NCBI GenBank assembly: GCA_919901855.1
Contig: CAKKQC010000063.1
Coordinates: forward strand, 1 to 64,000
Source: a bacterium
GTDB lineage: Bacteria > Oederibacteriota > CAKKQC01
Direction: 5' to 3'
Length of the DNA stretch: 64,000 nucleotides
Within the stretch, counting starts at the first letter, position 1, and each line of letters opens with the position of its first letter. Below, one piece after another: positions 5,263 through 36,676 of this stretch. A program made the translations under genes and the position numbers. Under the pieces are notes generated by a model, which was not told where the DNA came from, made no database searches, and saw only the letters and a program-made list of their open reading frames with translations.

Positions 5263-7206
5263 TCAGGGATTTTTCGGGGCGACGATCACGCGCATCGAGT
5301 CGACCGCGGCGAGGTACGCGGCCGCGAGCGGCGCCACGTCGCGCGCGGCGAACAGGTCCGCGAGCCGAAGGACTCCGGCCGCGAGCGCGTTGCGCTCCGT
5401 GATCGCGACCGCGAGGGGCGTAAAGCCGGCCGTGCGGACCGGGAGCGGGCCGGTGAGCGGCTCCGCGAGGCGGCGGGCCATCCCGAAGGCCCAGGCCGCC
5501 TCGGCCGCCCGGGACGGGCCGTCAAACGCCAAAAACTGCGCTCCCAGCGTCGAAAAACAGAAGGCCTGGTGCAGGAGCGCGTCCCGCGCCACCTCGTCCC
5601 GCGGCCGTTCGAGGTCGAAAACGGCCCCCGCCCGGGCGTACCGGAGACCCCGCCAGGTGTAACCCCGGATCGCCCGCCGGGTGTCGGCCAGCGAGCCCGC
5701 GGGATCCCACCGGCCCGGCCAGCGGGCGACCAGCCCCCGCGCCCGGTGCCGGCCGAGGTCCAGGGCCTCCCAGAGCGGACTGTCGTACCCGGTCTTGGCG
5801 TAGAAGGCGCCGGGCTGGGGCGGCCCGCCCAGGAGCCAGCGCAGGGCCTCCCAGCCCAGCCCCTCGAGATGGAACCGGGCCACCAGCCGCCGGTTCCCGC
5901 CGACATCGGCCGGCGCGAGATCGACGAGGGAGCCCATCCCGACCGCTTCGACATCCGCCCGGTCGCCCTCGGCGAACCGGACGGCCCAGAGCGGGAAGAG
6001 GTCGTCGTCGCCACGGCCGAGATACACGGCGCCCGGGGGCAGCGACGAGAGGATGTTTCGCGCGTAATCGTGCGCCGCGTACCATCGCGAGAAGTCGTTC
6101 CGGTCCAGTCCGCGGCCCGCCTGCCAGCCGCCGCCGAGCACGGCGAGGGTCGCCGCGACCACGGCGGCAGCGCGGCGCCGCCGGAGGAGCCCCGCGAGCA
6201 CGCCGACCCCGAGCCCGGCAAAGAGCACGAGCACGGCCCAGGCCGGGCCGTACCAGCGCGCGACCTTCATCGGCGTGTGGATCGCAAAGGCGAGGTTGAG
6301 GACGACGACCCAGGGCACCGCCACGGTCCAGAGGGTCGAGCGCGCGATACCGAGGGCCAGCCCGGCGGGCGCCGCCGCGAGGATGAGCCACGGCAGCTCC
6401 TCGCCCGTGAGCCGCAGGAAGAGCCGGCTTCCGGTCCGGACCGGGCCCTCCAGCGCCGGTCGCAGGGGATCCGGCTCGGGCGGCCGGTACCGCGCCGCGG
6501 TGAGATAGCGCTCGAGCCGGAACGAAGTCCGGGGATCGCCCCAGTCCAGGTCCGCGCCGGCCCGCACGGGCGGGTACATGACCCGTACGGAGAGCGGCAG
6601 GACGACGAGGACGAGGCCGAGCCCGAGCAGGCGCGCGCGGCGCCGCTCTCCCGGGAGGGCGGACACCACGCCGCACGCGGCCGCCGGCACGGCGAAGAAG
6701 ACGAAGGGATGGTGCGCGAGCCCGAGTCCCAGGAGCAGGGCGAGCCCGAGCAGGGGGCGGAGGCCGCCCTCCGCCGTCGTCTTCCAGGCCGCCCACAGGA
6801 CGGCGACGCATCCGAGGTAGAGCGCCGGGTACTTGTCGCCGATCCCGGCCTGCCACCAGAAGGTGTCCGAGAAACCCCAGACCAGCGTGACGAAGACACC
6901 CGCCCACCGCGCCGTCGCATCGCTCCGTCCCCAGGTCCGCAGGATCGCGGCGGCGAGGCTGCCGAGCCACACGGCCGCCAGGGCGGCACAAGCGGCGGCG
7001 GCCACGTTGACCCGGAAGGCCGGGCCGCCCGCTGGCAGCAGCAGCGCCAGCCGGCCCACCAGCAGCCATGGAGGCGTACCCGGTTCGTGACTATTCCCGA
7101 GCGTGGCGGCTGCCGCCAATAGCTCGGGAGAATCCTCAAAATAGAAGGAGCCCGCCACCCCGCGGAGGTAGACGGCGAAAACGGCCAGCCAGACGACGGC
7201 CGTCAC
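5263..7206 (-). CDS. DUF2723-type membrane glycosyltransferase (GT117-like)
   Basis: This 647-residue polytopic membrane protein has an N-terminal YFEDSPEL segment in the first outer loop. That corresponds to the D-x-x-E acidic motif of DUF2723/protein-O-mannosyltransferase-like enzymes, which use lipid-linked sugars at the outer face of the inner membrane. About ten hydrophobic segments fill residues 1-330, followed by a soluble C-terminal domain. The GTG at 7206 is chosen because it follows GAGGGATCC and lies 10 bases after the stop of the upstream paralogue; the open frame upstream is antisense-like noise. It is the last gene of the aminotransferase-ftsEX-like-DUF2723 operon. The sugar donor and acceptor are unknown. 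Confidence 0.8.
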   Translation of the reverse strand: MTAVVWLAVFAVYLRGVAGSFYFEDSPELLAAAATLGNSHEPGTPPWLLVGRLALLLPAGGPAFRVNVAAAACAALAAVWLGSLAAAILRTWGRSDATARWAGVFVTLVWGFSDTFWWQAGIGDKYPALYLGCVAVLWAAWKTTAEGGLRPLLGLALLLGLGLAHHPFVFFAVPAAACGVVSALPGERRRARLLGLGLVLVVLPLSVRVMYPPVRAGADLDWGDPRTSFRLERYLTAARYRPPEPDPLRPALEGPVRTGSRLFLRLTGEELPWLILAAAPAGLALGIARSTLWTVAVPWVVVLNLAFAIHTPMKVARWYGPAWAVLVLFAGLGVGVLAGLLRRRRAAAVVAATLAVLGGGWQAGRGLDRNDFSRWYAAHDYARNILSSLPPGAVYLGRGDDDLFPLWAVRFAEGDRADVEAVGMGSLVDLAPADVGGNRRLVARFHLEGLGWEALRWLLGGPPQPGAFYAKTGYDSPLWEALDLGRHRARGLVARWPGRWDPAGSLADTRRAIRGYTWRGLRYARAGAVFDLERPRDEVARDALLHQAFCFSTLGAQFLAFDGPSRAAEAAWAFGMARRLAEPLTGPLPVRTAGFTPLAVAITERNALAAGVLRLADLFAARDVAPLAAAYLAAVDSMRVIVAPKNP

Positions 7207-7216
7207 GCCGGATCCC

Positions 7217-9328
7217 TCACCGCGCCCGTCCTCCCAGCGCCTCCGCCCGGCGGAGGTCCGCCTGGGCGAGCGGGTCCCGTGGGGCCAGCTCGGCGACGTG
7301 GCGGAACACGCGTACCGCATCCGCGGTCCGTCCCTCCGCGACGTACAGGCCCCCGAGCGCGCGGTGCGCGGGCAGCCAGGAAGGGTCCCGGACGATCGCC
7401 GCTTCATACTCGGCGATGGCGCCCGCGACATCGTGGCGCGTCCGGTACAGGAGCAGGCCGATGGAAGCATGGGTGGCCGCCGGGCCGGTGCCCCAGAAGT
7501 CCGGCCAGCTCAGCGCCCGCCGGTACATGGCGAGCGCGGCTTCCGCCTCGCCCCGCCGGTCCAGGACGAACGCGCGCCGGTAGTCGCCGTACGCGTAGTA
7601 GCTCAGGGCCGTGCGGGTGTTGCTGTCCCGGACCGCCCCCGTGTCGAGGACGCCGCGCAGGGCGGCCCACCCGTGGAACCAGCGGCGCTCCCGCCTCACG
7701 TCCTCCCGGCGGAGCGCCTCCGGGTCCCGGCACCACCGGTAGACCGCCCCGTGCGGCAGGAGGTCGAGCGCCTCGGCCGCCTCGTAGACGACCGAGAAGC
7801 AGACGGGACGGCCGGGGTCCCGCCGCAGGAGGTCCGGCAGGTATTCGAACCGCCGCGCCAGCGGCTCCTGGCCCCTGGGGAACAGCAACTGCACCCGCTT
7901 GGCCCCCTCACGCGTCGACGTCGCCGCCGGGTCGGGCACCGAGTTCGAGTTGACGAGGATGACGTCGGGCCGCCGCTCCTCAATGTAGTGCGTGTACCAG
8001 AGCGGGAAGAGGTCGTAGTCCGCGTAGGCGATCAGGATGCTGCCCGGGGGACAGCTCCGCAGGAGCGCGGATGACAAATCCCAGGCGAAGTAGTGGCGGT
8101 CCCGGCGGGATTCCCGGCCGTGGGCTGCCGCCTGCCAGCCGCCCCATCCGATGAGAAGCGCCGCCGCCACCGCGGCCGTCAGGGGACGGCTCACCGCCGG
8201 ACGGCGGTCGGCCGCCAGACGGCCGCGGCTCTCCAGCCATCGCGCGGAGACCGCCAGCCCGCAGGCGATCCAGACCGCGAGGATCATGAAGGTCGGGAGG
8301 TAGTACGTCTGCACCGCGATGCCTTCGAGGCTGAAGTTCACGCAGTAGAGGACTCCCGTCCCCCACGCGAGCGCGAGAACGAGTGCTTCCCGGCGCCGGA
8401 CGCGGAAGAGCCAGCCGAGGCCGAGCAGGGCGAGCGCGACCCCGGGGTACCCGAACTGGCGGACCGGGTAGTCGGAGACGTGGTGGACGAGGCGCTTCGC
8501 GGCCTGCCACGGGGTCCAGTAGAGGATCCGGTACTGGTACGGCCCGCCGCCCGCATAGTCAGCGTAGCGCGGAAGGTTGCTGGGCGCGTTCCAGTTGAAG
8601 AGTGGCCCGGCCGCGGACCGGATCGGCGGGTACATCCCCTTCAGCGAGAGCCCGAGCACGGCGAGCAGGACGAGGAACACGGCCGCACGCAGGCGGCGCC
8701 GGGCGGGCAGACGGGCGAGCGCGAGCCAGCCCAGCAGCGCCGCGGACGGGGCGAAGTAGACGGTCTGGCCGTGGTGGCTCGCGCTGATCCCCCAGAGCAG
8801 CGCCAGGAGCATGAGCCACCGCGCGGGAGACCTTCCCGCCCTTCGCAGCGCAGCGAGTCCCATTGCCATGACGAGCAGGAGGGCCGCGTTGAAGCACAGG
8901 TTCATCGCGTACTTCTCCGCGATGACGGACTGCCACCACAACTGGGAGGCGGTGCCGAGGAGCCAGGCGGCGGCGAGGGACGCGAGCCACCCGAGCGCGG
9001 GCCGCAGGCCCGAAACGCCCGCAAGCAGGCGGTACGCGACGCAGGCCGCCAGGCCGCACGCAGCCGCCCCGCACGCGGCGGACAACAGGTTGAACCGGAA
9101 CGCGATGTCGCCGAGCGGCACGGCTGCGGCGAGGCGCCCGACGAGGGCGTAGAGGGGATATCCGGGCGGGTGATGGATGCCGAGGGTGAAGGACGGAGCG
9201 ATCATCTCGCCGCCGTCCTCGAAGGGGACCGTGGGCGACAGTGTGCGAAGGTAGAGGCCGAAAAGCGGCAGCGCCGCGGCGAGGAAGAGCCATCGCTGGC
9301 CGGCGGCGTCGCCCGCCCGGCGGCTCAA
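7217..9328 (-). CDS. DUF2723-type membrane glycosyltransferase with C-terminal TPR repeats
   Basis: This ~703-residue protein is paralogous to the downstream gene. It begins with a membrane helix and then a PFEDGGEMIAPSFTLGIHHPPGYPLY-like loop (read here as its key D-x-x-E acidic residues followed by the HPPGYPLY signature) typical of DUF2723. Around ten membrane spans follow, then a periplasmic domain and about three TPR repeats in the last 130 residues, a protein-interaction platform. The start is uncertain. TTG at 9328 is given; a CTG at 9343 would overlap the ftsX-like stop as CTGA, matching the overlap style of this genome. It probably glycosylates exported proteins or lipids in partnership with the FtsEX-like complex, but this is inference from the operon only. 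Confidence 0.82.
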   Translation of the reverse strand: MSRRAGDAAGQRWLFLAAALPLFGLYLRTLSPTVPFEDGGEMIAPSFTLGIHHPPGYPLYALVGRLAAAVPLGDIAFRFNLLSAACGAAACGLAACVAYRLLAGVSGLRPALGWLASLAAAWLLGTASQLWWQSVIAEKYAMNLCFNAALLLVMAMGLAALRRAGRSPARWLMLLALLWGISASHHGQTVYFAPSAALLGWLALARLPARRRLRAAVFLVLLAVLGLSLKGMYPPIRSAAGPLFNWNAPSNLPRYADYAGGGPYQYRILYWTPWQAAKRLVHHVSDYPVRQFGYPGVALALLGLGWLFRVRRREALVLALAWGTGVLYCVNFSLEGIAVQTYYLPTFMILAVWIACGLAVSARWLESRGRLAADRRPAVSRPLTAAVAAALLIGWGGWQAAAHGRESRRDRHYFAWDLSSALLRSCPPGSILIAYADYDLFPLWYTHYIEERRPDVILVNSNSVPDPAATSTREGAKRVQLLFPRGQEPLARRFEYLPDLLRRDPGRPVCFSVVYEAAEALDLLPHGAVYRWCRDPEALRREDVRRERRWFHGWAALRGVLDTGAVRDSNTRTALSYYAYGDYRRAFVLDRRGEAEAALAMYRRALSWPDFWGTGPAATHASIGLLLYRTRHDVAGAIAEYEAAIVRDPSWLPAHRALGGLYVAEGRTADAVRVFRHVAELAPRDPLAQADLRRAEALGGRAR

Positions 9329-9339
9329 CCTCGGGCCGG

Positions 9340-10200
9340 TCAGGGCCGCCGCACGCCGGCGGCGAACAGCCCCACGAGGGCCGGCAGCCCCAGCGCCACG
9401 CCCAATAGGGCGGCGCCCGCCGTGTGCGGCACGTCGGGCAGCGCCCCAAGCGGCCCCGCGGTCCATACACCGCCGAGGCGGCCGAGCACGCAGACGAGCT
9501 CGAGCGAGGTGGCGACGGCGGCCGCGATCAAGGCCGAGGGCGCGGCGAGCGCCCAAACCGCCCGCAGGAGCCGGCGGGGCCCGGAGGCGCCGAGTTCGGC
9601 GTACACGCGCAACTCGCCTCGCAGGTTGCCGGCCAGGCTCCCCAGCGCGAAGAGCGCGGTCAGCGCCGCGAACCCGCCCAGCCCCCACGCGGCCCCGCGG
9701 ATCAGCGCGAGCAGGAGCAGTTCGTGCTCGAGCACCTTGGGCGCGGTCGCGGACGGGGCGCGCACCGAGACGATGCCCGGCTGGTTCTTCATCCAGTCCG
9801 CGGCCTCGTGCCAGGACTCCATCGACGGCAGGCAGAGCTTCACGCGGAACGACCGCAGGAAGGGATTGGCCCCGTAGGCGTCGAGGAGCGGGCGAATGCG
9901 GTCGTCCTGCCCGGCTTCCCGGCGGGCCTCGTCGGCGTCCACGTACCGGGCTTCGCAGCACCAGGGCTGGCCCTCCACGGCCTGCTTGAACGACACCACC
10001 TGGGGTACGGTGGCCCCCGTCCCCAGGAACGCCTCGAGCAGGAGCACGGGGCGCCTGGCGACCAGCCAGGGCTTCGCGCTCAGCCCCGCCCAGAGGGCAA
10101 CGCCCCCGGCGATCCAGGCCGCCGTCAGGAGCCAGAGCGCCGGAGCGGCCCTGCCCGCCGCGGGTCCGGGACGCCACCAGGGCCGGGTGGGGCGGGCCAT
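9340..10200 (-). CDS. ftsX: FtsX-like ABC permease
   Basis: The 286-residue protein has one N-terminal membrane helix (about 20-40), an extracytoplasmic domain of ~110 residues with a conserved-looking pair of cysteines, and three C-terminal helices. This is the FtsX topology. In the family, FtsX transmits ATP-driven movements of FtsE to periplasmic cell-wall hydrolases during division. Here the partner ATPase lacks key catalytic residues, so the complex may act as a scaffold. The ATG (10200) overlaps the ftsE-like stop as ATGA, showing tight coupling. No amidase or peptidoglycan hydrolase gene is adjacent; instead two glycosyltransferases follow in the operon. Confidence 0.75.
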   Translation of the reverse strand: MARPTRPWWRPGPAAGRAAPALWLLTAAWIAGGVALWAGLSAKPWLVARRPVLLLEAFLGTGATVPQVVSFKQAVEGQPWCCEARYVDADEARREAGQDDRIRPLLDAYGANPFLRSFRVKLCLPSMESWHEAADWMKNQPGIVSVRAPSATAPKVLEHELLLLALIRGAAWGLGGFAALTALFALGSLAGNLRGELRVYAELGASGPRRLLRAVWALAAPSALIAAAVATSLELVCVLGRLGGVWTAGPLGALPDVPHTAGAALLGVALGLPALVGLFAAGVRRP

Positions 10201-10844
10201 CAGGCGTCCTCCGCGGGGGCCGCCAGGCTCTCGACCCGGCCCCCGGCGGGCACGGCGTTCAGGCCCGGGGCCCCCGTGACGAGGCACGCGCCCGACCCGG
10301 CGAGGTACGCGGCGAACTCGGCCCGAAGCGGGCCCGGCACGGCGTCCCCGTCGTCGACGGCCCAGTCCACGAGCAGGACGTGCGGCTTGCGCGCGAGCCC
10401 CCGCACCAGCGCCAGCGCGTACCGCACCCCCCGGGACAGTACGGCGAACGGTGCGCCCGCGTGCGCCCCCAGCCCCGCGCGCTCTATGGCCGCCCGGGCC
10501 TCGGTTACGGCGGCCGGCCAGGGGCGGCCCCCGCACGAGAGGCCGAGCGCGACCCAGGCCTCGGCGGTGAGATTGAGGACGGGCTCGTCGTCGAGGACGG
10601 CCGAGACGACCCGGCGCAGGCCCTGCCGGCCGGCCCCGGAGCTCTTGTAGGGGTTCTGCCCGTTCACGAGGACGGTCCCGCTCGCGGGCGCCACGCTACC
10701 GAGGGCCATGCGGACGAGCAGGCTCTTCCCCGCGCCCGAAGGACCGGTCACGTGCACGAGTTCCCCCGGCTTGATCTCGAGGTTGAACGCCCTCAGCACC
10801 CAGACCCGCCCCTGCGGCCCGCTGACATGGAGATACTGCAGCAC
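10200..10844 (-). CDS. ftsE: FtsE-like ABC ATPase with degenerate catalytic motifs
   Basis: The 214-residue protein aligns with FtsE over its full length. The Walker A loop GPSGAGKS (34-41) is intact. The Q-loop glutamine is absent (SAVLDDEPVL where FtsE has VFQD). The signature reads LSRGVRYAL instead of LSGGEQQR. Walker B ends VLLVDW, so the catalytic Glu is Trp161. The switch histidine is missing (LVTGAP). ATP binding may persist but hydrolysis looks unlikely. The GTG start lies one base after the aminotransferase stop, and the gene overlaps ftsX by ATGA. It could be a divergent FtsE scaffold or a decaying copy; the intact reading frame and coupling favour a retained function. Confidence 0.75.
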   Translation of the reverse strand: MLQYLHVSGPQGRVWVLRAFNLEIKPGELVHVTGPSGAGKSLLVRMALGSVAPASGTVLVNGQNPYKSSGAGRQGLRRVVSAVLDDEPVLNLTAEAWVALGLSCGGRPWPAAVTEARAAIERAGLGAHAGAPFAVLSRGVRYALALVRGLARKPHVLLVDWAVDDGDAVPGPLRAEFAAYLAGSGACLVTGAPGLNAVPAGGRVESLAAPAEDA

Positions 10845-10845
10845 G

Positions 10846-12057
10846 TCAGGCCGCCGGCGGGGCCGGCGCGATCTTCCGCATGTTGCGCAGCGCCTGCCGG
10901 ATCCGTTCCTCGTTCTCGACCAGCGCGAACCGCACGTACCCTTCGCCCTCGGGTCCGAACCCGGTCCCCGGAGACACGGCCACAGCCGCCTCCTGGAGGA
11001 GCTTCTCCGCGAACTTCATCGAGCCCATCGGGAGGAACGCCTCGGGCAGCCGCGCCCAGACGTACATCGTCGCCTTCGGCCGCGTCACCCCCCAGCCCTG
11101 CTTCTCGAGTCCCTCGGCCAGGATCTCCATCCGGGTGCGGTATAACTCGGCCGCCTCGCGGCAGGGCTCGAGCCCCTCGCGCAGGGCCGTGATGGCCGCC
11201 ACCGCGATCGGCGTGAAGATGCCGTAGTCGAGGTAGCTCTTGATCTTCGTGAGGGCGGCCACCCCCTCGGCGTTGCCGACCATGAACCCGACTCGCCAGC
11301 CCGCCATGTTGTACGACTTCGTCATGCTGAAGAACTCGACGCCGACGTCGCGGGCGCCGGGAATCTCGAGGAAGCTCGTCGCCTTGTACCCGTTGAACAC
11401 GATGTCCCCGTAGGCGAGGTCGTGGATCACGAAGAGCCCCTCGGCCTTGGCGAACGCGACGAGGCGCTCGAAGAACGAACGCTCGGCGGTCGCCGCCGTG
11501 GGGTTGTGCGGGAACGAGCAGAGGACGATCCTCGGCCGCGGGGTCGTGACCTTGAGGGCGGCCGCGAACCGGTCCACGAGCGTGTCCGGGTCCCCGAGCG
11601 GCACCGTGACGGGCCGGGCTCCCGCGAGCAGGACCCCGTAGGTGTGGATCGGGTAGGTCGGCGAAGGCACGAGCACGGTGTCGCCCTCGTTCAGGATCCC
11701 GTACATGAGGTGCGTGAGCCCCTCCTTGGATCCGATCGTGACGATGACCTCGCGCTCGGGGTCGAGATCGACGCCGAACCGCTCCTGGTACCCTAAAGCG
11801 ATCGCGCGCCGCAGGTGCGGGATACCGCGGGACGCCGAGTACCGGTGGGCCTTGGGGTCGTGGGCCGCCTCGCATAGCTTCTCGATGATGAAGGGGGCGG
11901 GGGGGCGGTCGGGATTCCCCATCCCGAGGTCGATGACGTCGACGCCGCGCGCGCGCGCCTCCGCCTTGATGGCGTTGACGCGGGCGAAGAGGTAATCGGG
12001 CAGGCGACGGATGCGCTCGGCCATGATCGGCTGCCGGGCACCCGGGGTTTGGCTCAT
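10846..12057 (-). CDS. Class I/II aminotransferase, AlaC (glutamate-pyruvate) type
   Basis: This 403-residue PLP enzyme carries DLGMGNPDRP near the N-terminus, CSFPHNPTA near residue 180 and the PLP-lysine (Lys247) in SMTKSYNMAGWR. The pattern matches AlaC/YfdZ-like transaminases and their LL-diaminopimelate aminotransferase relatives. It most likely interconverts pyruvate/alanine with glutamate/2-oxoglutarate. No lysine-pathway gene is nearby, so the diaminopimelate role is less likely. It heads the operon leading into the FtsEX-like and DUF2723 genes. There is no Shine-Dalgarno sequence; a GATAAT box sits 6 bases before the ATG, so the mRNA is probably leaderless. Confidence 0.9.
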   Translation of the reverse strand: MSQTPGARQPIMAERIRRLPDYLFARVNAIKAEARARGVDVIDLGMGNPDRPPAPFIIEKLCEAAHDPKAHRYSASRGIPHLRRAIALGYQERFGVDLDPEREVIVTIGSKEGLTHLMYGILNEGDTVLVPSPTYPIHTYGVLLAGARPVTVPLGDPDTLVDRFAAALKVTTPRPRIVLCSFPHNPTAATAERSFFERLVAFAKAEGLFVIHDLAYGDIVFNGYKATSFLEIPGARDVGVEFFSMTKSYNMAGWRVGFMVGNAEGVAALTKIKSYLDYGIFTPIAVAAITALREGLEPCREAAELYRTRMEILAEGLEKQGWGVTRPKATMYVWARLPEAFLPMGSMKFAEKLLQEAAVAVSPGTGFGPEGEGYVRFALVENEERIRQALRNMRKIAPAPPAA

Positions 12058-34281: not shown

Positions 34282-36676
34282 CGCTCGATGTCCCGGCCGG
34301 TGGACGGGAAAGCCCGAAGTGGCGCTGGATGGCCTGTGCCGTCGCGCGGGCGCTGAGTTTCGTCGTGTCCAGTTGCAGCCAGGGCGCGGGGGCACGCCAG
34401 CCCTCCGGAGGCATCGACGAGCGGAAGCCGTAGCGCCGGATGATACTCTCGGAGAGCTTGAGGTCCCGCATCCCGGGTTTGTGGCGCAGCCGGTTCGCCG
34501 TCCGGCTCCGGCGCAGGCGCTCCCGGAGGCTGGCGTCGAGCCCGACCAGGAGCACGCGCGCGCCCCGCCGCCTGAACGGCCGGATGAACGCCGCGACCTG
34601 CCTCGTGCAGGTCGGATTGCCGAACACCCACGAGTAGGTCATCACGACCCCGGGAACTCCCGGGTCGGCCGCCGCCTCCTCGAGGATACGGCGGCGCGTC
34701 TCGAAGAGGAGCCGCCCGAAACGCTCGGTTCCGAACCCGAAGATCGAGGCCAGGGGATCGATGGTCATGTGGTTGTGGAGGAGCCGGTAGCCCGTGCGCC
34801 GGCACAGGTGCTGGCCGACGGTCATCTTCCCCACCACCGGCGGCCCGAAGACGAGGATGAACGTCTTGCGCGGGCGGGGCGGCGGGGCCGGTTTCGCCGC
34901 GGTTCGCGCCAGCGCCGGGTCCGCGCCGATCTCGACGAGCGCCCGCTCGAGGAACTCGTCGCGGCCCTCCCGGACCCCGCGGATGGTCCGCTCCACCGGG
35001 ACCGTGGGCCGGATCCCGATCAGATGGTGCCGGGACCCGTCGTGCTTGACCACCCGCATGCCGGTAAAGTTGATCGTGTACCGGCCGGGGAGGCCCATCG
35101 TGTTGACGTTGCCGTTCGTCCCGGCCGTGGGCGCCCCCACGATCGGCCCCAGCTTGTACCCCTCAACGAATCCCATCAACGACTCCGCGTAGCTGATCGC
35201 CCGCGCGTCCGTGAGAAAGACGACCTTGCCCCGGATCCGCGGTCGCATGGGCCTCAAGTTCCACCCCTCGCATTCGTATCCCACGAGCCGCTCGCGGTCC
35301 GGGTGGATGATCCGGGGAATCCTCATCCATGCCCCGGCCTCGTCCTCCTTCCGGAGCAGGTGGTTGAGCACGGAGGTGACGCCCTTGTCCGGGTAGCCGC
35401 GCATGTCGAAGACGACCGCCCGCGCCGTGGCCAGGACCGGCATCTTCTTCCCGAGTTCCTCGTCCGAGAACTCGGGCAGGTTGACATAGAAGACGCCCGG
35501 GGCCAGCTCGGCGAACGGCGTCTTGGGCCCCGGATCCCACATCGCACTCTTCGTCGAAGTCCTTGGCGAGACGAATCGCAGGACCCGGCCCTCCCGGCTG
35601 ACCGTAAGCCGGGCCTTCGTCCCATACATGCCGTAACCCAGTTTGTTCAGCGCAGAAACCTTGACCCACTGCGGGGAACCCGAGACCACGCTCTCCTCGT
35701 ACGCGAGGATCCTCGTCGCCGGCTTGCCGTCGATCTCGAGGAGGATGTCGCCGGGCCTCAGCGGGCAGTCCTCCCAGACGAGATCGATCACGATCTTCCC
35801 CTCGATCCAATCCAGCCGGAACGGCGGGCATCCCCACCGGCCAGGCGTCCCCGGTCCCCCCACGCCACCGTGCCCGTCCCTCGTCTTCGCCACGAGCCGC
35901 TTCAGGAGCCTCTTGAAGTCCTCGCCGCCGCCGGTGTTGACGGCCTCCCGCAGGGTCCCGGACAGGACGGAGTCCCAATCGACTTTCACGATGTCGAAGT
36001 AGGGATAGAAGTGCTGGTACACGTTCCACGCAACGATGATGGAGGCCATCCGCACTTCCTGCCGGCTTGCTTCGAGATTGCGAGGGGGAATGCGCGCCAA
36101 TTGCCGCTTGAGCGACCCGAGTGGAACCGGGGACGGCGAACTCCAAGTCCGGTTCCGCACGATGCGCAGGGCCAGCGGCACGCGGCACCAAAGCCCGGCA
36201 CCAAGCGGCTCGATGGTCGCCTCCCCAAACCGCGGGACCTCCTTGAAACCCACGGGCTTGTCGATGACGCGAGCCTTGCCGTCCCCAAAGACGACCCGGT
36301 TGACTCGGTTGGTTCGCAGGCTCCGGTATATCGGCCATCTCCTGTGATTGCAGTCGGTCACGCCAAGGTGCTGCCAGGAAGTGGTCCGGCCCGCCCCGAG
36401 GCCCGCCGGCGGAATCTCCGGCCTCTCCGGACGGCTTGGCCGCCCGGCGTAGAGGCGCACGGTCGGCGCGATCGGGAGGAACAGCTCCTCCAGCGTCCAC
36501 TTCAACTCGCGGGCGTTGCCGGCGCGAAGCACCCGGCCCGCGGCGTGGACGACGAACCGGTTCCAATCCATGGCCGCCGCCTCGTCGCTCGGATGGAAGT
36601 ACCGGACGTAACCGTAAAGCCGCGCAAAGGCGCGCAAGGCATCGAGCCGCATGCGAGTCGGACGTGAAGCGCTCAT
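34277..36676 (-). CDS. S41-family peptidase fused to a P-loop kinase-like domain
   Basis: The 799-residue protein has two unrelated parts. Residues 1-585 resemble S41 (C-terminal processing/tricorn-like) peptidases: an N-terminal helical domain (LRAFARLYGYVRYFHPSDE), a PDZ-like segment (PLRPGDILLEIDGKP, 306-319) and the catalytic Ser495 in ARAISYAES. Residues ~605-799 form a nucleotide kinase/AAA-like domain with P-loop GPPVVGKMTVG (611-621) and LLHNHMTID, as in the uncharacterised shikimate-kinase-like family. S41 relatives with this N-domain usually carry a signal peptide; this one does not, so it is probably cytoplasmic. No frameshift is needed and the frame is continuous. A GGGAGG site supports the ATG at 36676. 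Confidence 0.82.
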   Translation of the reverse strand: MSASRPTRMRLDALRAFARLYGYVRYFHPSDEAAAMDWNRFVVHAAGRVLRAGNARELKWTLEELFLPIAPTVRLYAGRPSRPERPEIPPAGLGAGRTTSWQHLGVTDCNHRRWPIYRSLRTNRVNRVVFGDGKARVIDKPVGFKEVPRFGEATIEPLGAGLWCRVPLALRIVRNRTWSSPSPVPLGSLKRQLARIPPRNLEASRQEVRMASIIVAWNVYQHFYPYFDIVKVDWDSVLSGTLREAVNTGGGEDFKRLLKRLVAKTRDGHGGVGGPGTPGRWGCPPFRLDWIEGKIVIDLVWEDCPLRPGDILLEIDGKPATRILAYEESVVSGSPQWVKVSALNKLGYGMYGTKARLTVSREGRVLRFVSPRTSTKSAMWDPGPKTPFAELAPGVFYVNLPEFSDEELGKKMPVLATARAVVFDMRGYPDKGVTSVLNHLLRKEDEAGAWMRIPRIIHPDRERLVGYECEGWNLRPMRPRIRGKVVFLTDARAISYAESLMGFVEGYKLGPIVGAPTAGTNGNVNTMGLPGRYTINFTGMRVVKHDGSRHHLIGIRPTVPVERTIRGVREGRDEFLERALVEIGADPALARTAAKPAPPPRPRKTFILVFGPPVVGKMTVGQHLCRRTGYRLLHNHMTIDPLASIFGFGTERFGRLLFETRRRILEEAAADPGVPGVVMTYSWVFGNPTCTRQVAAFIRPFRRRGARVLLVGLDASLRERLRRSRTANRLRHKPGMRDLKLSESIIRRYGFRSSMPPEGWRAPAPWLQLDTTKLSARATAQAIQRHFGLSRPPAGTSSV

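What the first reader, a model, noticed from the sequence alone, without database searches (positions are those of the whole stretch)
10200..10844. FtsE-like ATPase without Q-loop Gln, signature Gly, catalytic Glu or switch His
Walker A is intact, but Walker B ends in Asp-Trp, and the other hydrolysis motifs are lost, while the reading frame and coupling to ftsX are kept. This suggests an FtsEX complex that binds but does not hydrolyse ATP, linked to two glycosyltransferases instead of a cell-wall hydrolase.
Basis: partly seen in the sequence, partly recalled or inferred. Interest (0 to 1): 0.6.

Follow-up and report, generated by a model that had tools for sequence, protein, structure and literature searches.

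The report
Conserved pseudo-ATPase FtsE beside FtsX
The ATP-driven motor half of a bacterial cell-separation switch (FtsE) has lost its ATP-splitting parts in this organism and in a sister genus, yet both keep the gene joined to its membrane partner FtsX, which suggests that the switch can work as a fixed scaffold without burning ATP.

Summary
Window 10200-10844(-) encodes an FtsE-like ABC subunit with an intact Walker A but no Q-loop Gln, first signature Gly, catalytic Glu or switch His. Its stop overlaps the ftsX start (ATGA). It is not a decaying copy: the only other genome held from its class, a different genus (55% identity), has a syntenic orthologue with the same losses plus Walker A Lys to Gln. 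Codon-position bias shows selection on the protein. Each genome has one FtsX and no canonical FtsE. Across 45 genomes of the phylum FtsE is canonical in ten families, part-degenerate in three, fully degenerate in this family and in G007, and undetected in two families that keep ftsX-envC-ctpA. In nearly all others envC directly follows ftsX; here EnvC lies elsewhere, an amidase gene is present, and TMEM260-like genes follow ftsX. Best reading: a pseudo-ATPase FtsE that holds FtsX as an ATP-independent scaffold for EnvC and the amidase. 'Binds but does not hydrolyse ATP' is only half supported, because the sister lacks the ATP-binding Lys. The glycosyltransferase link is neighbourhood, not shown function. 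New variant of a known kind; biochemistry untested.

The parts
10200..10844 (-). degenerate ftsE (pseudo-ATPase), 214 aa, GTG start
10722..10745 (-). Walker A GPSGAGKS (residues 34-41), intact here, GPSGSGQS in the sister genus
10590..10592 (-). position of the Q-loop Gln, here Asp85 (VLDDE), conserved in the sister
10425..10439 (-). signature motif LSRGV (residues 136-140) in place of LSGGE; sister LPRGD
10362..10379 (-). Walker B VLLVDW (residues 156-161): Asp kept, catalytic Glu replaced by Trp; LVDW also in the sister
10266..10268 (-). position of the switch His, here Pro193 (VTGAPG); sister MTGESP
9340..10200 (-). ftsX, 286 aa; FtsX_ECD match; start overlaps the ftsE stop (ATGA)
7217..9337 (-). 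TMEM260-like multi-pass protein with C-terminal TPRs (start codon approximate); counterpart follows ftsX in the sister
5263..7145 (-). second TMEM260-like protein (start approximate); no counterpart seen between ftsX and speE in the sister
10846..12057 (-). class I/II aminotransferase just upstream of ftsE; same position in the sister

Best explanation
The protein is the FtsE subunit of this organism's only FtsEX complex, turned into a pseudo-ATPase and kept for its structural part: docking under FtsX (and perhaps tethering it to the Z-ring). The FtsX extracellular domain would then bind EnvC, encoded elsewhere, and localise it to the septum so that EnvC activates the Amidase_3 cell-wall amidase, without an ATP-driven on/off cycle. 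Shown here by sequence: loss of the hydrolysis motifs in two genera, protein-level selection, coupling to ftsX, no other FtsE detected, presence of EnvC and amidase genes. Inferred: absence of ATPase activity, docking on FtsX, ATP-independent EnvC/amidase action.
For: Motif losses in the window protein and in its 55% identical syntenic orthologue, which also lost the Walker A Lys (AAG to CAG). Selection: codon-position differences 0.30/0.28/0.56; 55% aa identity against 36% (maximum 45%) in neutral simulations at equal DNA divergence; NG86 dN 0.38, dS 1.10. Synteny aminotransferase-ftsE-ftsX-TMEM260-speE in both. One FtsX_ECD in each genome, and no FtsE near the 253-282 bits of canonical ones. 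The FtsX model matches FtsX chains of FtsEX/EnvC structures first. EnvC orthologues and an intact-looking amidase. Lineages with ftsX-envC-ctpA and no detected FtsE. Literature: E. coli FtsE-D162N still promotes EnvC-dependent cell separation in part when uncoupled from FtsA (PMC7343993); the Fusobacterium nucleatum ftsX locus lacks ftsE, yet FtsX and EnvC mutants are defective in cytokinesis (PMC5915739).
Against: No biochemistry. Only two genomes of the class are held; the sister contig has coverage 3.2 in its title, so Lys to Gln could be an error. In the window Walker A and the Walker B Asp remain, and the P-loop block is the best conserved segment between the two (78%), which could mean that some nucleotide or other ligand still binds. 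In E. coli, ATP hydrolysis is needed for full function, and a hydrolysis mutant blocks division through FtsA (PMC7343993); FtsA is present in the window genome. ftsX is itself diverged (FtsX_ECD 25 bits, no FtsX permease-domain match). The structure model of FtsE was too poor to use (pLDDT 47).
Confidence: 0.55

Rival explanations
1. ATP-locked clamp: FtsE binds ATP and dimerises but does not hydrolyse it, so FtsX is held in the ATP-bound, EnvC-activating state.
For: Walker A and the Walker B Asp are intact in the window; the P-loop segment is 78% identical to the sister; an E. coli hydrolysis mutant still supports some EnvC-dependent separation.
Against: The sister has Gln for the P-loop Lys and Pro for the signature Ser; the signature motif, needed for the ATP sandwich, is broken in both; the N-terminal segment with the A-loop is poorly conserved (31%).
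Confidence: 0.2
2. Hetero-NBD: the degenerate FtsE pairs with a canonical ABC ATPase (LolD/MacB-like) of the genome, which supplies the hydrolysis, as in ABC exporters with one degenerate site.
For: The genome has many canonical ABC ATPases; in Fusobacterium, whose ftsX locus lacks ftsE, another ABC ATP-binding protein was pulled down with FtsX (PMC5915739).
Against: From general knowledge, in degenerate heterodimers the subunit with the dead Walker B usually keeps its signature motif to complete the partner's active site; here both are lost, so both composite sites would be impaired. No candidate partner gene was seen next to ftsE/ftsX.
Confidence: 0.1
3. Decaying pseudogene on its way to loss.
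For: Hydrolysis motifs lost; the sister has lost one more; related families have no detectable FtsE.
Against: Open frames in two genera at 55% identity, protein-level selection, specific replacements conserved (LDDE, LVDW), overlap with ftsX kept in both.
Confidence: 0.05
4. Re-purposed complex: the diverged FtsX/FtsE pair now serves the TMEM260-like glycosyltransferase proteins or another envelope process rather than cell separation.
For: envC is no longer next to ftsX in this family although it directly follows ftsX in nearly all other families; a TMEM260-like gene follows ftsX in both genomes; ftsX is strongly diverged.
Against: EnvC and the amidase (both genomes) and FtsA (window genome) are still encoded, with no other FtsX to serve EnvC; gene neighbourhood alone is weak evidence.
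Confidence: 0.1

Closest known systems
FtsEX-EnvC-amidase system (E. coli, P. aeruginosa, V. cholerae; type VII ABC system)
   Same: FtsE-like ABC subunit overlapping ftsX; FtsX fold with extracellular domain; EnvC with degenerate LytM domain and Amidase_3 encoded in the genome
   Different: FtsE lacks the hydrolysis motifs, and in the sister also the P-loop Lys; envC is not in the ftsEX locus; FtsE scores 75 bits against a 265-bit cut-off
FtsX-EnvC of Fusobacterium nucleatum, with no ftsE at the locus (PMC5915739)
   Same: FtsX and EnvC used where no ordinary FtsE is seen
   Different: Here a degenerate FtsE is kept and overlaps ftsX; in Fusobacterium no adjacent ftsE exists and another ABC ATPase is suggested
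FtsE-D162N type ATPase mutants of E. coli (PMC7343993)
   Same: Non-hydrolysing FtsE with FtsX that can still use EnvC
   Different: Laboratory mutant thought to be locked with ATP; here a natural protein with all hydrolysis motifs lost
ABC exporters with one degenerate nucleotide-binding site (review PMC7756269)
   Same: Catalytic Glu and H-loop lost together
   Different: Those have one working site; FtsE works as a homodimer, so both sites would be lost

Membership tests
FtsE (TIGR02673) | score over the curated cut-off of 264.85 bits | tested here: not met
   75.3 bits; canonical FtsE of the phylum give 253-282
FtsE (TIGR02673) | complete ABC ATPase motif set (Walker A, Q-loop, LSGGE, Walker B Glu, switch His) | tested here: not met
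   only Walker A and the Walker B Asp remain
FtsE (TIGR02673) | gene directly upstream of ftsX, overlapping or coupled | tested here: met
   ATGA overlap; same order in the sister
FtsE (TIGR02673) | FtsE is the best-scoring family model among ABC subunits | tested here: met
   TIGR02673 best at 75.3 bits, next CydD 57.3
FtsE (TIGR02673) | ATPase activity and binding to FtsX/FtsZ | not testable with these tools
   needs biochemistry
FtsX (PF18075) | FtsX extracellular domain over the gathering score | tested here: met
   25.2 bits against 23.5, genome search 28.2
FtsX (PF18075) | FtsX-like permease domain (PF02687) | tested here: not met
   no match in the window or the sister; FtsX of G017 and G003 match over the cut-off
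FtsX (PF18075) | fold of solved FtsX chains | tested here: met
   best Foldseek matches are FtsX of FtsEX/EnvC complexes, prob 1.00; EnvC-bound FtsX periplasmic domain TMt 0.70; model pLDDT 63
FtsEX-EnvC-amidase system | EnvC and Amidase_3 encoded in the same genome | tested here: met
   EnvC, Amidase_3
FtsEX-EnvC-amidase system | ATP-driven conformational signalling to EnvC | not testable with these tools
   predicted absent from motif loss

The most novel reading that the evidence does not exclude
In one branch of this bacterial phylum the FtsX-EnvC-amidase switch has become independent of ATP hydrolysis: FtsE first lost catalytic residues (families f5, f7, f11), then became a full pseudo-ATPase (this family and G007), and in other families (f3, f12) vanished while ftsX-envC-ctpA stayed. 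The FtsX-EnvC tree puts all these lineages on one side of a branch, weakly supported (51/51).
Probability: 0.35. Interest if true: 0.75.

Novelty: new variant of a known kind. Interest (0 to 1): 0.58.

Why it matters
FtsEX is described as a machine in which ATP use by FtsE is passed through FtsX to switch on cell-wall hydrolases. A natural, selected FtsE without the hydrolysis residues, in a phylum with intact, partly decayed, dead and missing FtsE beside a persistent FtsX-EnvC, gives a natural series for asking what ATP is needed for: recruitment, activation or timing. Library searches found no paper on a pseudo-ATPase FtsE, but the library holds open-licence papers only.

Tried and rejected
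AlphaFold of FtsE with two rows gave pLDDT 47 and was not used for any claim. The genome-contig scan named only one true relative, recorded as Candidatus Coatesbacteria nzgw597; the other two loci (Paenibacillus, Frankia) are weak partial matches and were not followed. I considered that FtsA might be missing where FtsE is dead: rejected, FtsA is found in the window genome and in most degenerate lineages (not found in the incomplete sister genome). I considered that CtpA had lost its active site together with FtsE: the dead CtpA-like gene next to envC is followed by a second CtpA with the Ser and Lys motifs intact, so protease function is not lost. Single versus multiple origin of FtsE decay could not be settled. 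YN00 dN/dS failed numerically; NG86 was used.

Full report
What is there. The ORF 10200-10844(-) encodes 214 aa, starts with GTG, and its TGA overlaps the ATG of the next gene (ATGA). The protein is an ABC ATP-binding subunit (Pfam ABC_tran, 64 bits) whose best NCBIfam model is FtsE at 75 bits, far under the FtsE cut-off of 265. The next gene, 9340-10200(-), is ftsX by its extracellular domain (25.2 bits, cut-off 23.5). A structure model of it (pLDDT 63) finds FtsX chains of FtsEX/EnvC structures first.

Motifs. Aligned with canonical FtsE proteins of the same phylum, the window protein keeps Walker A (GPSGAGKS) and the Walker B Asp, but has LDD for the Q-loop FQD, LSRGV for LSGGE, DW for DE, and APG for THN.

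Orthologue test. The class holds one other genome (G001; contig JAHFSL010000035.1, recorded as Candidatus Coatesbacteria bacterium nzgw597). Its FtsE is 55% identical, in the same order aminotransferase-ftsE-ftsX-TMEM260-speE, and shows VLDDE, LPRGD, LVDW and no switch His. It also has GPSGSGQS, with the P-loop Lys replaced by Gln through one base change. That contig has low coverage in its title (3.2), so this single base needs confirmation. Differences by codon position (0.30, 0.28, 0.56) and 55% protein identity against 36% (maximum 45%) in neutral simulations at the same DNA divergence show selection on the protein.

Second copy. The genome (93% complete) has one FtsX_ECD. With the FtsE model its best hits are at most 205 bits, in the range of LolD/MacB-type proteins (my reading); canonical FtsE of the phylum score 253-282, a clear gap. 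A canonical FtsE in the missing part cannot be excluded, but the sister shows the same absence.

Phylum context. Of 45 genomes of the phylum, 44 have exactly one FtsX_ECD hit; the exception, G022, is 86% complete. FtsE beside it: canonical in f2, f4, f6, f8, f9, f10, f13, f14, f15 and f16 (G042 of f15 has LSCGE); partly degenerate in f7 (Gln to Pro or Ser, LSSGE, often Glu to Asp, His to Gln), f11 and f5; Walker A also lost in G007 (f7); none beside ftsX in f3 and f12, where a Crp-like gene (my reading) precedes ftsX and envC and ctpA follow, and no hit over 223 bits elsewhere. A tree of FtsX plus EnvC puts the degenerate and FtsE-less families on one side of a branch, but with weak support (51/51; degenerate ones alone 69/85), so one origin or several remain open.

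EnvC and amidase. Outside this family, an EnvC-like protein follows ftsX in nearly every genome examined. In G000 and G001 the EnvC orthologue lies on another contig, between a polA-like fragment and two CtpA-like genes; it lacks the M23 zinc ligands, as known for EnvC (PMC11627006). An Amidase_3 protein is present with its usual motifs, and so is FtsA (G000).

Mechanism. From PMC11627006, ATP binding by FtsE moves the FtsX extracellular domains and EnvC. From PMC7343993, a non-hydrolysing E. coli FtsE still promotes EnvC-dependent separation in part. From PMC5915739, Fusobacterium uses FtsX and EnvC although its ftsX locus has no ftsE. I conclude that FtsE here most likely serves as a structural subunit and that FtsX-EnvC acts without an ATP cycle. 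Shown: sequences, synteny, selection, gene content. Inferred: no ATPase, scaffold role, EnvC binding. ATP binding without hydrolysis remains possible for the window protein but is not a conserved feature if the sister base is right.

The glycosyltransferase link. The two neighbours are TMEM260-like. One is conserved beside ftsX in the sister. This may be an operon of envelope genes; no functional link was tested.

Noticed in passing
L095-L100, L126, L127 (genomes G018, G034, G036, G003, G009, G014, G026, G030): Families f3 and f12 carry ftsX with a Crp-like gene upstream and envC-ctpA downstream (G014 is cut at the contig end) but no ftsE beside it, and no FtsE-grade hit elsewhere: FtsX-EnvC without FtsE.
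   Followed up: partly
L107 (G007), L108, L109, L119-L123 (family f7), L106 (G012), L105 (G005): FtsE proteins with part of the motifs lost (Gln to Pro or Ser, LSSGE, Glu to Asp, His to Gln); in G007 the Walker A is gone too.
   Followed up: partly
L136 and L147 (G000:C34), L133 and L146 (G001:C390): envC is followed by a CtpA-like gene that lost the Ser (GTRG for GSAS) and Lys (FGY/FGF for FGK) of the active site, then by a second CtpA with both motifs, then by a YibQ-like (my reading) gene; conserved in both genera.
   Followed up: partly
window 9340-10200: FtsX extracellular domain has a CC pair (GQPWCC) and a further Cys conserved between the two genera; the permease domain is too diverged for Pfam.
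   Followed up: no
window 34994-35488: A further Peptidase_S41-like match (44 bits) in an 833-aa open frame on the minus strand.
   Followed up: no
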